This document shows, piece after piece, positions 33,516-56,864 of a stretch of DNA of 64,000 nucleotides. Within the stretch, counting starts at the first letter, position 1. The number at the start of each line of letters is the position of its first letter. The DNA is taken from NCBI GenBank assembly GCA_013298775.1, contig JAAFIV010000001.1, positions 186,001 to 250,000 on the forward strand. The letters run 5' to 3'. A program made the position numbers and the translations under genes. The DNA is from Ignavibacteria bacterium. GTDB lineage: Bacteria; Bacteroidota; Ignavibacteria; Kapaibacteriales; UBA4661. Below the pieces are notes generated by a model, which saw nothing but the letters and a program-made list of their open reading frames with translations, was not told the DNA's origin and did no database searches.

Positions 33516-33525
33516 AGAAAGTATG

Positions 33526-33602
33526 AAATATGAATGATGAAGTATGAATCTTGAAAGCCGCTCCAATACTCGTCTCGGAGTTTCATAATTCATACTTCAT
33601 CC
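33526..33602. repeat. Inverted repeat of the ATGAAGTATGAAT type (family G, empty)
   Basis: ATGAAGTATGAAT (near 33539) and ATTCATACTTCATC (to 33601) form a palindrome between grpE and dnaJ. Similar words border the inserted four-helix gene at 48053-48572. Confidence 0.6.
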
Positions 33603-33666
33603 TTTCCTTACGCCTATTTACCGCATCACGACCTTTACTAACGGAAGAAGAAAAACCAAAAACATC

Positions 33667-42220: not shown

Positions 42221-43654
42221 ATGAAACCTTTGCAACTCCTTTGTTTGCGTGTCGTTGTGGGTGCCGTCGCGCTTGTGCTGTGCCTACCTCACAACACTCA
42301 TGCGCAAGCTACCTCTGTCCCAACTGCGCCCGCAACCGAAACACCTGGGACTACACGCACACTCAGCCTTGATGACTGTTTGAAAATTGCGCTGGGGGAA
42401 AATCCTGAAGTTTTGATTGGCTTGGCACAAGCACAAGCTGCTGCAGCTCAGTCTAAATCTGCTTTTGCAGGCTTTTTGCCAACAATGGATATTAATGGCG
42501 GTTACGGCAGAACGCTGAACGACACCACACTCCGTATCTTTCCGCGTCCGCGCCCGAATAGTGCTGAGGTAGAGCTTGCTTTTACCCCATTCTACACGCC
42601 AGATGTTTTTCGCAATGGATTTGCACTCAATGCTTCGATTGATTACGTCATTTTCAACGGACTTCAGCGTGAAAACAATTATGCTGCCGCACAATCTAGC
42701 CTACAAGCCAGCGAGCAGACACTTACTCAAACAAAACGCCGAGTTTTAGCCACTGTCCGCACACAGTTTCTTGCTGTTATGCGCTCGAAGCAGATTTTGC
42801 GCGTCCGCCAAGAAGATTTCGCCATCGGCAAAAAACAGCTCGAACGCATTCGTGCGCAGTTTGACGCGGGTGTAATTCCGATTGCAACAGTCTTCACGCA
42901 AGAAGCAGACCTTGCAAACCGTGAATTGGCGGTGGTGCAAGCGGAAAATGATGTGGAATTGGCAAAAGGAACGCTTTTGACGACGCTTGGCTTAAATCCT
43001 GGCGCGACGGTGGATTTCTCCGAACTTACCTTGCAGCAAAACCTGACAGAATCTGACCTTCGCGCCTTTCGTTCAACAGTTGGCGATTTTGGCAAAGCCT
43101 TCGCAACCTCGCTTGAGAAACGCAGCGATTTAGCGGCGGCAAAGTCGCAGATTGAATCCGCGAACGCAAGCGTCAGTGCGGCTCAGGGTGCGTGGTTGCC
43201 AACGGTGTCGGCGAATGCAAGCTATAATTGGAACAGCCCTGTTGTGAGCAATTTTCAATACGGTTCGCAGTCAGTCGGTTTGAATTTTCAATACAGAATT
43301 TTCGACGGTTTCCAACGCGATGCAAACACCCAACGCGCAAAAGCAACACTTTCACAAAATGAATTGCAAAAGCGTCAAGCTGAACAGCGCATCGCTTCTG
43401 ATGTGCAGAACGGTTTTATTCAACTCAATACTTCTGAAAAGAATCTCGACATCACCGCACGCGCACTCAAAGCTGCCCAACAAAACTTCGATGCGGCTGA
43501 AGAACGCTTCAAAGTTGGCGCGGCGAACATTCTCGACCTCACCACTGCAAACGCAAATCTCGCAACGGCGAAAATTAACCGCATTACCGCGCTCTACAAC
43601 TATCTCGGCGCACAATTCCAGATGAAATTTGCACTTGGAATGTTGGACGAGTAA
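42221..43654 (+). CDS. TolC-family outer-membrane efflux protein
   Basis: 477 residues with a signal peptide (about 1-29, cleavage near THAQ). Two repeated OEP domains are visible: the first from LSLDDCLKIALGENPEV and the second from ALETSLEKRSDLAAAK (reads ATSLEKRSDLAAAK), with long helices rich in Ala, Gln and Asn (ALKAAQQNFDAAEERFKVGA, NILDLTTANANLATA). It forms the trimeric outer-membrane channel for the inner-membrane complex encoded next. It is the first gene of the transport operon, 98 bp before the adaptor gene. Confidence 0.92.
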   Translation: MKPLQLLCLRVVVGAVALVLCLPHNTHAQATSVPTAPATETPGTTRTLSLDDCLKIALGENPEVLIGLAQAQAAAAQSKSAFAGFLPTMDINGGYGRTLNDTTLRIFPRPRPNSAEVELAFTPFYTPDVFRNGFALNASIDYVIFNGLQRENNYAAAQSSLQASEQTLTQTKRRVLATVRTQFLAVMRSKQILRVRQEDFAIGKKQLERIRAQFDAGVIPIATVFTQEADLANRELAVVQAENDVELAKGTLLTTLGLNPGATVDFSELTLQQNLTESDLRAFRSTVGDFGKAFATSLEKRSDLAAAKSQIESANASVSAAQGAWLPTVSANASYNWNSPVVSNFQYGSQSVGLNFQYRIFDGFQRDANTQRAKATLSQNELQKRQAEQRIASDVQNGFIQLNTSEKNLDITARALKAAQQNFDAAEERFKVGAANILDLTTANANLATAKINRITALYNYLGAQFQMKFALGMLDE

Positions 43655-43660
43655 GGCAAA

Positions 43661-43683
43661 GGATGAAATCTGAGGGATGAAGA
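43661..43683. repeat. GATGAAATCTGAGGG word (family G, single copy)
   Basis: GGATGAAATCTGAGGGATGA follows the TolC-like stop codon. It matches the repeat flanking the four-helix gene at 48053 and, inverted, at 48543. Confidence 0.6.
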
Positions 43684-46803: not shown

Positions 46804-48051
46804 ATGTTCCAACAACTCATCGAAGGTATGAAAATTGCCTTCAGTGCTATTCGCTCCAATAAACTCCGCTCTGGGCTGACCTCGCTCGGTGTGGTGATTG
46901 GCATTGCGTTCGTTATTTTCATGGGCTGGTTCTTGCAGGGCTTGGACAATGCCTTCGAGGGCGCGATTGCTACGCTCGGCACGGATGTTATCTACATTGA
47001 TAAATTCGATTGGGCTGGACGCAAGTCCTGGCGCGAGACCATGGGCAGACCCGATATCACCATTCGCCAATGCGAGGAGTTGATGAATCGGATGCAAACC
47101 TCCGAAGCCGTCTCCGTTATTGGGCGCAAGTGGCAATCGAATATCAAGTACGGCAATCAAAACTACAACGGCATCACGATTGTCGGCGCGAATAGTGTCT
47201 ATGCGGATATTGCGGCTGGTATCATTAAAACAGGGCGTTTTTTCTCGCCAGTGGAGGACAACTATGGCGCGAATGTGGCGGTTGTTGGGAATGATATTGT
47301 GAAAAATATCTTTGGCGAAAATGTGGACCCGATTGGACAAACAATTAAAATTAAAGGAATTACCTTCACGGTGATTGGCAAAATTGAGAAACAAGGTTCA
47401 ATGTTCGCGCCGCCCTGGATTGACAATCAAATTATCATTCCGCTCAAAGGCTTTTTGAACATTTACGGCACCACGAATAAAATGAAAAGTATTTCGGTTG
47501 CCATCAAAGCTGGCGGCGAGGAAAACGTTGAAAACGTGAAGCTGGAAGCCGTCGGCCATATGCGCCAAATACGCCGCTTGGAGCCAGGCGAAGAAGATAA
47601 TTTTGCGGTGAATGAATCGCAAGCCTTTCGGGATAATATCGCCAATATCCGTGTTGGTGTCTGGGCTGTGGGGCTTGGCTTAACGATGCTTTCCTTCCTT
47701 GTCGGTATTATCGGCATTATGAACATTATGTTTGTGTCGGTAACCGAGCGCACGAAGGAAATCGGCATCCGCAAGGCTCTGGGGGCGCGTCGCCGCTCGA
47801 TTCTGTTCCAATTTCTCGTGGAAGCCTCCGCGCTCTGTTTCATGGGCGCGGTGATTGCCTTCGTCCTCTGCGCCGTCGTGATGTTCGGCATAACCCGCAT
47901 GGAATGGGCAACCTTCCTCTCGCCGTATATTCCCGTGAATTTGCTGATTATTGCCACTGTTGTTTCTATTTTCGTTGGCATTCTTGCGGGAATGATACCA
48001 GCAATGCGAGCCTCACGTTTAGACCCCGTTGATGCGCTTCGTTACGAGTAA
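46804..48051 (+). CDS. MacB/FtsX-type ABC permease 1
   Basis: 415 residues with the MacB layout: one N-terminal membrane span (about 20-42, GLTSLGVVIGIAFVIFMGWF), a large periplasmic MacB_PCD domain (about 45-280) and three C-terminal spans. The last part carries the FtsX signature GIMNIMFVSVTERTKEIGIR, KALGARRRSILFQFLVEA and the end DPVDALRYE. It is not identical to permease 2, so the active complex is probably a heterodimer sharing one ATPase. Confidence 0.93.
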   Translation: MFQQLIEGMKIAFSAIRSNKLRSGLTSLGVVIGIAFVIFMGWFLQGLDNAFEGAIATLGTDVIYIDKFDWAGRKSWRETMGRPDITIRQCEELMNRMQTSEAVSVIGRKWQSNIKYGNQNYNGITIVGANSVYADIAAGIIKTGRFFSPVEDNYGANVAVVGNDIVKNIFGENVDPIGQTIKIKGITFTVIGKIEKQGSMFAPPWIDNQIIIPLKGFLNIYGTTNKMKSISVAIKAGGEENVENVKLEAVGHMRQIRRLEPGEEDNFAVNESQAFRDNIANIRVGVWAVGLGLTMLSFLVGIIGIMNIMFVSVTERTKEIGIRKALGARRRSILFQFLVEASALCFMGAVIAFVLCAVVMFGITRMEWATFLSPYIPVNLLIIATVVSIFVGILAGMIPAMRASRLDPVDALRYE

Positions 48052-48052
48052 G

Positions 48053-48077
48053 AAAGGATGAAATCTGAGGGCTGAAG
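48053..48077. repeat. Left border repeat of the four-helix gene cassette (family G)
   Basis: GATGAAATCTGAGGGCTGAAG immediately follows the permease 1 stop codon and runs up to the ATG of the next gene. It is inverted at 48543-48572. Confidence 0.75.
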
Positions 48078-48078
48078 T

Positions 48079-48465
48079 ATGAAAGCGGAAAAAACAAGAA
48101 CAGAAAATACAGAAGGTCGTGAGGATTTACGGATTCGGACAAAACGTTTTGCTTTGCGTATCATTCGACTTTTCCAGTCACTGCCTTCAACAACGGAAGC
48201 CCAGATTATCGGTAAGCAGGTTTTGCGCTCTGCAACATCTGTCGGCGCACAATATCGTGAAGCATTTCGCGCAAAATCCGACGCTGATTTCATCAACAAA
48301 CTACAAAGCTGCTCACAAGAACTCGAAGAAACAGTCTATTGGCTTGAACTACTCATCGAAGCAGAAATTATCCCAGAACACAAGCTAGCAGACCTCATGC
48401 AAGAGGCAGACGAAATCATGGCAATTTTTATTACAATCATTCGCAAAGTCAAACAACGTCAATAA
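48079..48465 (+). CDS. Four-helix-bundle protein (S23/23S rRNA intervening-sequence family)
   Basis: 128 residues. The family is recognised by DLRIRTKRFALRIIRLFQSL, then IGKQVLRSATSVGAQYREA, SDADFINKLQSCSQELEETV and YWLELLIEAEII, making four helices; it is related to Avd accessory proteins of diversity-generating retroelements. Family members are known from insertions in 23S rRNA genes and as isolated genes; their biochemical role is unclear. This copy interrupts a transporter operon, in the same orientation, between inverted family-G repeats. That position and unrelated function mark it as a later insertion. Confidence 0.88.
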   Translation: MKAEKTRTENTEGREDLRIRTKRFALRIIRLFQSLPSTTEAQIIGKQVLRSATSVGAQYREAFRAKSDADFINKLQSCSQELEETVYWLELLIEAEIIPEHKLADLMQEADEIMAIFITIIRKVKQRQ

Positions 48466-48512
48466 CGCGGCAAAACGATGCACAAAGGATAATCACAAAG
48501 GCACGAACAATC

Positions 48513-48572
48513 TTGCTTCACCCCTCAGATTTCACTCTTTGCTTCATCCCTCAGCCCTCAAATTTCATCCTT
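48513..48572. repeat. Right border repeats of the four-helix gene cassette (family G)
   Basis: Two tandem, inverted copies: CCCCTCAGATTTCA (48520 region) and CTTCATCCCTCAGCCCTCAA-ATTTCATCC (48543-48571). They are complementary to the left border at 48053. Confidence 0.75.
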
Positions 48573-48576
48573 TTAT

Positions 48577-49812
48577 ATGAAGCAAATCATCGAAAGTATT
48601 ATCATGGCATTCGATGCCGTGCGAGCAAACAAGCTGCGTTCAGGCTTAACGCTGCTCAGTATTGCCATTGGCATTTTTGCCATTATCGGCGCGGGAACTG
48701 CCGTTACGTCGCTGAATAATTCTGTAAACGGCGAACTTGCGTCGCTGGGGCAGAATACCTTTCAAATCAAGCGGCGACCAAGTATTATCATGGGCAACCG
48801 CGAGTGGATGAAATATCGTAATCGCAAGCATATTACATTTTCTGCGGGGCGTGAATTTAAGCGCATGATGGGCGAAAGTGCTGAAGCTGTCAGCCTGTAC
48901 GACTATGAGGATAATTTGACCGTCAAAGCGAATAATCTCGCCACCGACCCAACCGTCCAAGTCGATGGCATTGATGAATCGTACATGATTTGCAACAACG
49001 TCTCGGTGGACGAAGGGCGCGAGTTTACGGAGAATGATATTAGTTTGAACCGACCCGTTGCGATTATTGGTGTAGATGTTGCAGAACGCTTGTTTCCTAC
49101 TTCGTCGCCGATTGGTCAGGAAATAAGCATCAAAGGGCATCGCTTCACGGTGATTGGAATGCAGAAAAAGCGCGGTTCTATCTTGGGTTCAAGCCTTGAT
49201 AACAACGTCTATATCCCGCTTCCGCTCTACATCAAGTTCTTTGCAGAATTTGTGAGCGTAACAATTTTCGTAAAATCTCCCTCGAAAGAAGCATATCCCT
49301 TTGTGTTGGATGAAACCATAGGAATAATGCGGACTTTGCGCAATGTGAAGCCGGGCGAGGACAATAATTTTGAAATTGAAACCAATGAATCGCTTGCCAA
49401 TTCTTTTGCAGGATTTACCGAGTATTTAACCATGTTCGGCTTTGCGTCGGGCGCGATTGCGCTCATTGCAGCAGGTGTGGGCATTATGAACATTATGCTC
49501 GTGTCGGTGAAAGAGCGGACGCGGGAAATCGGTGTGCGTAAAGCAATCGGCGCGAAACGCTGGAATATCATGTCGCAGTTTGTGATTGAAGCCGTTACGC
49601 TCTGTCAAATTGGCGGAGTGTTTGGAATTATTTTAGGCTACTTAGGCGGCTTGGCACTGAGCGCGGCGGCTGGCTTTACCTCCGCTGCTGTGCCAACAAC
49701 GTGGGTGGTTGGAAGCGTGGGAATTTGTACGCTTTTGGGTGTGCTTTTCGGCAGCTACCCCGCATGGAAAGCCGCTTCCTTAGACCCAATTGAGGCATTG
49801 CGCTACGAGTAG
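48577..49812 (+). CDS. MacB/FtsX-type ABC permease 2
   Basis: 411 residues, same layout as permease 1: N-terminal span (GLTLLSIAIGIFAIIGAGTA), periplasmic domain (about 45-280) and three C-terminal spans with GIMNIMLVSVKERTREIGVR, KAIGAKRWNIMSQFVIEA and terminal DPIEALRYE. It is clearly diverged from permease 1, supporting an asymmetric permease pair. The upstream 111 bp are repeat borders, so it relies on read-through from upstream or on its own promoter. Confidence 0.93.
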   Translation: MKQIIESIIMAFDAVRANKLRSGLTLLSIAIGIFAIIGAGTAVTSLNNSVNGELASLGQNTFQIKRRPSIIMGNREWMKYRNRKHITFSAGREFKRMMGESAEAVSLYDYEDNLTVKANNLATDPTVQVDGIDESYMICNNVSVDEGREFTENDISLNRPVAIIGVDVAERLFPTSSPIGQEISIKGHRFTVIGMQKKRGSILGSSLDNNVYIPLPLYIKFFAEFVSVTIFVKSPSKEAYPFVLDETIGIMRTLRNVKPGEDNNFEIETNESLANSFAGFTEYLTMFGFASGAIALIAAGVGIMNIMLVSVKERTREIGVRKAIGAKRWNIMSQFVIEAVTLCQIGGVFGIILGYLGGLALSAAAGFTSAAVPTTWVVGSVGICTLLGVLFGSYPAWKAASLDPIEALRYE

Positions 49813-56660: not shown

Positions 56661-56693
56661 GGAATGGATGAAATCTGAAATTTGAAGGATGAA

Positions 56694-56864
56694 TTGAAGT
56701 TAAGATAAATTCTTGCGCGGCCCTCATCCCAACCCTTTTCCCAGAGGGAGAAGGGCAAGATTTTGTGGGGTTTCTGAAGCCCTCTCCCTCTGGGAGAGGG
56801 TTGGGTGAGGGCTTCGTGCAGGGCAAGGTTTGATGCGGCTTGTAGGATTTTATCTCAACTTCAA
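56694..56864. repeat. Nested palindromes: family-E core inside an outer inverted repeat
   Basis: The outer arms TTGAAGTTAAGATAAAT (56694-56710) and ATTTTATCTCAACTTCAA (56847-56864) enclose the family-E core 56721-56812 (CCTCATCCCAACCC...GGGAGAGGGTTGGGTGAGGG). Family-G words (GGATGAAATCTGAA) stand just outside. The rest of 56865-57068 shows no gene. Confidence 0.7.

What the first reader, a model, noticed from the sequence alone, without database searches (positions are those of the whole stretch)
48053..48572. Four-helix-bundle (S23) gene inserted as a repeat-bordered cassette in an ABC transporter operon
The gene lies between two MacB-type permease genes that otherwise would be adjacent. GATGAAATCTGAGGG-type borders on the left are inverted (and doubled) on the right, and the left border runs straight into the gene's ATG. 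The same border words occur without a gene at 33526-33602, 43661 and 56663. This looks like a mobile or copy-spreading unit consisting of an S23/Avd-like protein plus its border sequences, a possible undescribed element.
Basis: partly seen in the sequence, partly recalled or inferred. Interest (0 to 1): 0.72.

Follow-up and report, generated by a model that had tools for sequence, protein, structure and literature searches.

The report
S23 gene inside its own heptad-repeat hairpin
A small gene of the family known from inserts in bacterial ribosomal RNA sits here in an ordinary operon, bracketed by short 7-letter repeats that mirror each other; the same design, with a different 7-letter word almost every time, recurs around most of the relatives examined from many bacterial phyla, which suggests a widespread and little-described selfish element and a source for the puzzling 7-letter repeats scattered through bacterial genomes.

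Summary
The S23/IVP gene (48079-48465) lies between two MacB genes whose junction is 30-57 bp in relatives without it, inside a 31-nt inverted repeat (90%) whose right arm is doubled. The arms are tandem heptads; the last left heptad contains the start codon. This genome has one S23 gene but 122 copies of the border word, often as gene-less hairpins, so the literal claim that these words mark S23 genes fails. The general form survives: 73% of 154 distinct S23 loci have inverted flanking arrays against 3% of control genes and 3.6% of mismatched flanks; period is 7 or 14 in 100 of 112; the unit differs from locus to locus and correlates with S23 protein similarity (rho 0.36, P 0.001). Three cognate units are most abundant in the genomes carrying the matching S23 gene. 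S23 elements also lie nested in DNA-methyltransferase genes with the host frame open through them. Best reading: a relative of the 23S-rRNA intervening sequence living in protein operons, with gene-less hairpin derivatives (REPIN/RAYT-like logic, unrelated protein). Movement is inferred from empty sites; no target duplication was found, and the transposition chemistry is unknown.

The parts
46804..48051 (+). upstream host gene, MacB-type ABC transporter permease
   Evidence: PF12704 and PF02687 over cut-off
48053..48083 (+). left arm: heptads GGATGAA ATCTGAG GGCTGAA GTATGAA; overlaps the S23 start codon
   Evidence: inverted repeat I1; sequence read directly
48079..48465 (+). S23 / 23S rRNA-intervening-sequence-type four-helix-bundle protein, 128 aa
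   Evidence: PF05635 75.5 bits, TIGR02436 97.3 bits; closest solved structure of the subgroup profile 2RLD, E 8.5e-48
48511..48540 (-). inner right arm, inverted copy of the left arm (83%)
   Evidence: inverted repeat I2
48543..48573 (-). outer right arm, inverted copy of the left arm (90%)
   Evidence: inverted repeat I1; pairs with the left arm in the predicted RNA
48577..49812 (+). downstream host gene, MacB-type permease
   Evidence: PF12704 and PF02687 over cut-off
33516..33607 (.). gene-less inverted pair of related heptads (xxATGAA)
   Evidence: read directly
43662..43676 (+). single border word, exact, a few bases after the stop codon of 42221-43654
   Evidence: context (L003)
56667..56695 (+). 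single heptad array (GGATGAA ATCTGAA ATTTGAA GGATGAA), no partner arm seen nearby

Best explanation
The cassette is an S23 element: a selfish unit made of one S23-family gene and its own heptad arrays in inverted orientation, related to the S23-coding intervening sequences of 23S rRNA but living in protein operons and sometimes inside protein genes. Transcribed with the host operon, the arrays pair into a hairpin with the S23 message in the loop (predicted by folding). Inferred: the S23 protein recognises its own heptad stem and helps the unit, and gene-less derivatives made of arms and a short loop, to copy into new transcribed sites, as RAYT proteins are thought to do for REPINs; RNase III probably cuts the stem, as in rRNA. 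Shown: anatomy, recurrence, unit diversity, unit-protein correlation, co-occurrence of dispersed copies with the cognate gene, empty sites, open host frames in nested copies. Not shown: binding, cleavage, transposition or its chemistry.
For: Inverted flanking arrays at 73% of 154 distinct S23 loci vs 3.2% of 221 control genes in the same loci, P 2e-44; mismatched flanks of different loci 3.6%, direct orientation 15.6%. Best period 7 or 14 in 100 of 112 arms; lag-7 identity 0.70 vs 0.27 background. Unit differs by locus but correlates with S23 identity: Mantel rho 0.36, P 0.001, 0.35 after allowing for G+C. Dispersed copies follow the gene: border word 64 and 50 copies in G000 and G005, which carry this S23, 0-1 in eight other genus/family genomes; G007 unit 63 copies in G007, 11 each in G000/G005, 0 in the other seven; G002 unit 77 in G002, the highest of ten. 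Gene-less copies fold as hairpins, z about -3.4 to -7.3; cassette z -3.2. Empty junctions. 88 of 103 placed elements point the same way as both neighbouring genes. Nested elements in Eco57I-type, HSDR_N-Eco57I, PglX and one unidentified host gene keep the host frame open in +2; synonymous-shuffle P 0.0002-0.0016 (L036), 0.007 (L061), 0.027 (L032), 0.08-0.29 (L034, L035, L037, L039).
Against: No target-site duplication or clean recent insertion was seen between G000 and G005; most sites are shared and it is the loops that vary. 27% of S23 loci show no flank repeat at the threshold. S23 has no known catalytic motif, and a reverse transcriptase partner is unlikely: RVT_1 was found in only one of ten genomes, G000, and not in G005, G007, G002 or G045. 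The G002 unit is also abundant in G007 and G005, so repeats persist, or spread, without a cognate S23 gene. G000 and G005 are sister species, so that co-occurrence is one event. Samples were chosen by profile score or peptide pattern, not at random.
Confidence: 0.6

Rival explanations
1. Domesticated regulator: the heptad hairpins are host regulatory or RNA-stability elements and S23 is their host-encoded binding protein; the gene is embedded in one of its own sites for autoregulation. Copies spread only slowly.
For: Repeat sites are mostly conserved between G000 and G005; gene-less copies lie between genes, often just after stop codons; heptameric repeats elsewhere are mostly transcribed and not tied to known mobile elements (PMC4692102); a regulatory role was proposed for TAACTGA repeats (PMC4679880).
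Against: A different unit at nearly every S23 locus, absence from most species of the same genus, and nesting inside methyltransferase genes look parasitic rather than regulatory.
Confidence: 0.2
2. Passenger: heptad hairpins spread by another agent (replication slippage, recombination or an unknown transposase) and S23, like GxxExxY and other small genes, is cargo picked up in hairpin loops.
For: At the same MacB junction other species carry other cargo: a DUF433/DUF5615-like pair in G007, a GxxExxY-type gene with its own inverted repeats in G002, a gene-less repeat in G001. Loops of heptad hairpins receive other palindromes.
Against: GxxExxY flanks do not show the heptad period. The unit-protein correlation and higher unit counts in carriers are not expected of cargo.
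Confidence: 0.15
3. RNA-processing unit only: inserted once by rare recombination, the stem is cut by RNase III to split the transcript and uncouple the neighbouring genes; no mobility.
For: Coxiella IVS is cut by RNase III in its terminal stem (PMC4990558); the cassette folds with a long terminal stem.
Against: Does not explain 50-120 dispersed copies per genome or open host frames through nested elements, which indicate that the intact transcript is translated.
Confidence: 0.05

Closest known systems
23S rRNA intervening sequence (IVS) with S23p ORF, e.g. Coxiella burnetii (PMC4990558)
   Same: S23-family ORF, long terminal inverted repeats forming a stem, tandem heptamers next to the start codon, similar total size (428 nt there; arms 48053-48573 span 521 nt here)
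   Different: Sits in a protein operon or inside protein genes, not in rRNA; has many gene-less hairpin relatives in the same genome; heptad unit differs at each locus
REPIN/RAYT (PMC3116915) and TnpA-REP (PMC8266576)
   Same: One protein gene bordered by the same inverted repeat that is dispersed without gene in the genome; repeat family specific to the protein
   Different: Protein is a four-helix bundle of the S23 family, not a Y1/HUH transposase; repeats are heptad arrays rather than 20-40 bp palindromes
Rickettsia palindromic elements (reviewed in PMC10969869)
   Same: Palindromic insertions tolerated inside protein genes with the host frame kept open
   Different: Those elements are not described with an S23 gene or heptad structure; here a second gene is encoded in another frame of the insert
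Heptameric repeats of Calothrix, Nostoc and Xanthomonas (PMC4692102) and TAACTGA repeats of Beggiatoaceae (PMC4679880)
   Same: Dispersed arrays of 7-nt units, mostly intergenic; S23 loci of Nostoc and other cyanobacteria here are flanked by heptad arrays
   Different: The passages read do not link them to S23 genes; whether those particular units have cognate S23 genes was not tested
Avd accessory protein of diversity-generating retroelements
   Same: Same protein superfamily (established knowledge, not tested here)
   Different: No template repeat looked for; RVT_1 absent from nine of ten genomes searched

Membership tests
S23 / PF05635 protein family | profile match over curated cut-off | tested here: met
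   75.5 bits vs 33.8; TIGR02436 97.3 vs 24
rRNA intervening sequence (IVS) | S23 ORF enclosed by terminal inverted repeats | tested here: met
rRNA intervening sequence (IVS) | heptameric repeats beside the S23 start codon | tested here: met
   GGATGAA ATCTGAG GGCTGAA GTATGAA; period 7 across loci
rRNA intervening sequence (IVS) | located in a 23S (or 16S) rRNA helix | tested here: not met
   between two MacB genes; exact search for six conserved 23S words in the S23 loci hit one locus only, by a single 13-base word (L046), a weak screen
rRNA intervening sequence (IVS) | excised by RNase III | not testable with these tools
   needs RNA
REPIN/RAYT | protein with HUH/Y1 transposase domain | tested here: not met
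   only PF05635 matches in Pfam
REPIN/RAYT | dispersed non-autonomous inverted pairs sharing the borders | tested here: met
Classical transposon or MITE | target-site duplication at filled versus empty sites | tested here: inconclusive
   empty junction too diverged to align; G000/G005 comparison gave no clean case
Diversity-generating retroelement (Avd) | reverse transcriptase in the genome | tested here: not met
   RVT_1 in G000 only, not in G005, which carries the same cassette

The most novel reading that the evidence does not exclude
S23 elements are a class of bacterial mobile element without a recognisable transposase: a four-helix-bundle protein reads a heptad hairpin code, each lineage with its own word, and spreads gene-bearing and gene-less hairpins through transcribed regions. 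The classical 23S rRNA IVS would be the special case that landed in rRNA, and the long unexplained heptameric repeats of cyanobacteria and other bacteria would be its non-autonomous progeny.
Probability: 0.4. Interest if true: 0.9.

Novelty: new variant of a known kind. Interest (0 to 1): 0.78.

Why it matters
It would connect two old puzzles, what the S23 protein of rRNA intervening sequences is for and where dispersed heptameric repeats of bacteria come from, in one hypothesis with a simple test: does each S23 protein bind its own heptad stem. It also points to a very common gene family (298 of 395 genomes of this phylum sampled) as selfish, and shows it nested in phage-defence-type methyltransferase genes with overlapping reading frames.

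Tried and rejected
(1) Literal reading that the GATGAAATCTGAGGG word marks S23 genes: rejected. (2) Reverse-transcriptase-driven spread using a resident RT: disfavoured. (3) Exact insertion boundaries or target duplication from 29 (G000 to G005) and 31 (G005 to G000) colinear repeat sites of two sister species: sites mostly shared, loops variable, nothing clean. (4) Flank repeats as a by-product of base composition, or of heptads in general: rejected by control genes, mismatched flanks and direct-orientation control. The first control set was contaminated by S23 genes not yet masked; one search replaces it. (5) Seven-sequence alignment A1 was too diverse for a collection scan; A2 was used. (6) Centring a last genome search on Gammaproteobacteria, to test GGGAATC in Xanthomonas, was not accepted by the tool. 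(7) Ten paper searches found no description of S23 genes with cognate heptad arrays outside rRNA; only open-access text was searched, and short passages of the papers were read.

Full report
Observation. The S23 gene at 48079-48465 (PF05635 75.5 bits, TIGR02436 97.3 bits) sits between two MacB-type permease genes. It is enclosed by a 31-nt inverted repeat, 48053-48083 / 48543-48573 (90%), with a second inverted copy at 48511-48540. The arms are tandem heptads: GGATGAA ATCTGAG GGCTGAA GTATGAA, the last containing the S23 start codon. The border word occurs 7 times in the window where shuffles give 1.4. As RNA the cassette folds with a terminal stem closed by these arms (z -3.2).

Own genome. 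There is one S23 gene but 122 places with the word at up to two mismatches, and none for the word read backwards. Many are intergenic, often a few bases after a stop codon, and several are inverted pairs with a short loop; four of these examined fold as hairpins with z -3.4 to -7.3. So the borders are a dispersed hairpin family and the S23 cassette is its gene-bearing member.

Empty sites. The homologous MacB junction is 30 bp in G006 and 57 bp in G003, and 2-43 bp in G010-G013 (from the coordinates). In G005 the S23 cassette is present, its 5' part displaced by inserted sequence that looks TnpB-like by eye. Elsewhere the junction holds other cargo: a DUF433/DUF5615-like pair in G007, a GxxExxY-type gene with inverted repeats in G002, a gene-less repeat in G001 (these gene names are by eye). 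The junction therefore receives insertions repeatedly.

Generality. S23 genes were collected from relatives, the phylum and a GTDB scan covering many phyla. A local alignment of 300 nt upstream against the reverse complement of 300 nt downstream scores at least 14 in 73% of 154 distinct S23 loci, 3.2% of 221 control genes from the same loci (P 2e-44), 3.6% of mismatched flanks and 15.6% of same-strand comparisons. In the arms the best period is 7 or 14 in 100 of 112, and lag-7 identity is 0.70 against 0.27. Six S23 genes on named plasmids (Anabaena, Nostoc, Planktothrix, Treponema) show the same kind of arrays, including one between cas2 and cas1 in each of two records and one between drmD and pglX. 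S23 genes were selected by profile score or peptide pattern, so the percentages are not population estimates.

Cognate units. Units differ from locus to locus, yet pairs of loci with more similar S23 proteins have more similar units: Mantel rho 0.36, P 0.001; 0.35 after allowing for G+C. Dispersed copies follow the gene. The window's word is present 64 and 50 times (up to one mismatch) in G000 and G005, which carry this S23, and 0-1 times in eight other genomes of the genus and family. The G007 unit is present 63 times in G007, 11 times each in G000 and G005, and not in the other seven. The G002 unit is commonest in G002 (77) but also common in G007 (58), G005 (51) and G004 (23). In G045 the unit is confined to about 8 kb around its S23 element.

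Nested elements. In L034, L035, L037, L039 (Eco57I-like methyltransferases), L036 (HSDR_N + Eco57I), L061 (BREX-1 PglX, 857 bits) and L032 (host gene not identified) the S23 element lies inside a longer gene, in the methyltransferases between the YTPPELV-like motif and DPACGSG, and the host frame runs open through the element in the +2 frame of S23. Excluding the first five loci, only 3 of 175 S23 hits had an open +2 frame, and the fuller listing shows those are L061, its duplicate L090, and L032. Synonymous shuffling gives P 0.0002-0.0016 for L036, 0.007 for L061, 0.027 for L032 and 0.08-0.29 for the Eco57I-like group, whose members are related. This suggests selection to keep the host protein translatable across the insert. 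Pieces of heptad hairpins also appear in frame elsewhere in some of these genes, read by eye.

Mechanism. The anatomy equals that of the Coxiella 23S rRNA IVS: S23 ORF, 28-bp terminal inverted repeats, tandem heptamers (PMC4990558). The genome-level pattern resembles REPIN/RAYT (PMC3116915): one gene bordered by the repeat that is dispersed without it. I infer that S23 recognises its heptad stem and promotes spread. This is not shown. Comparison of 29 and 31 colinear repeat sites in G000 and G005 found mostly shared sites with variable loops and no clean insertion or target duplication. A resident reverse transcriptase is not required for carriage, since RVT_1 was found only in G000 among ten genomes.

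Novelty. Heptameric repeats have been reported in Calothrix, Nostoc and Xanthomonas and described as little studied and not generally associated with mobile elements (PMC4692102); TAACTGA repeats likewise (PMC4679880). I found no paper linking them to S23, within open-access text and ten searches. I file the finding as a new variant of the IVS kind; a separate class of mobile element remains possible.

Noticed in passing
L234-L263 (GxxExxY / PF13366 loci); MacB junction of G002 (L229): GxxExxY genes are also flanked by inverted repeats (20 of 29 loci at score 14 or more), with CACAGAG-like words at irregular 8-12 nt spacing rather than heptads: possibly a second protein family with the same cassette design.
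   Followed up: partly
L034, L035, L036, L037, L039, L061, L032: S23 genes nested in methyltransferase-type genes in an overlapping +2 frame that leaves the host ORF open; the methyltransferase cases share the same place before motif DPACGSG.
   Followed up: partly
L344 and L346 (Anabaena and Nostoc plasmids); L348 (Planktothrix plasmid): S23 elements inserted between cas2 and cas1 on the opposite strand, and between DISARM drmD and BREX-type pglX.
   Followed up: no
L315, L323, L342 versus G005 counterparts: Loops of heptad hairpins contain another dispersed palindrome (like GTGGCACAGACATTCTTGTCTGTG) in one species but not the other: nested insertion or replacement.
   Followed up: no
L224 (G007), L233/L225 (G001): The same MacB junction carries a DUF433/DUF5615-like gene pair in G007 and a CCCCCTTTG-type gene-less hairpin in G001; named by eye.
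   Followed up: no
L230 and L226 (G005 contigs C71, C75): The S23 gene of G005 appears interrupted near its 5' end by sequence that looks like a TnpB/IS605-type gene, split over two contigs.
   Followed up: no
G000:C68:245-769: A single RVT_1 reverse transcriptase match in the window's genome, absent from the nine others searched.
   Followed up: no
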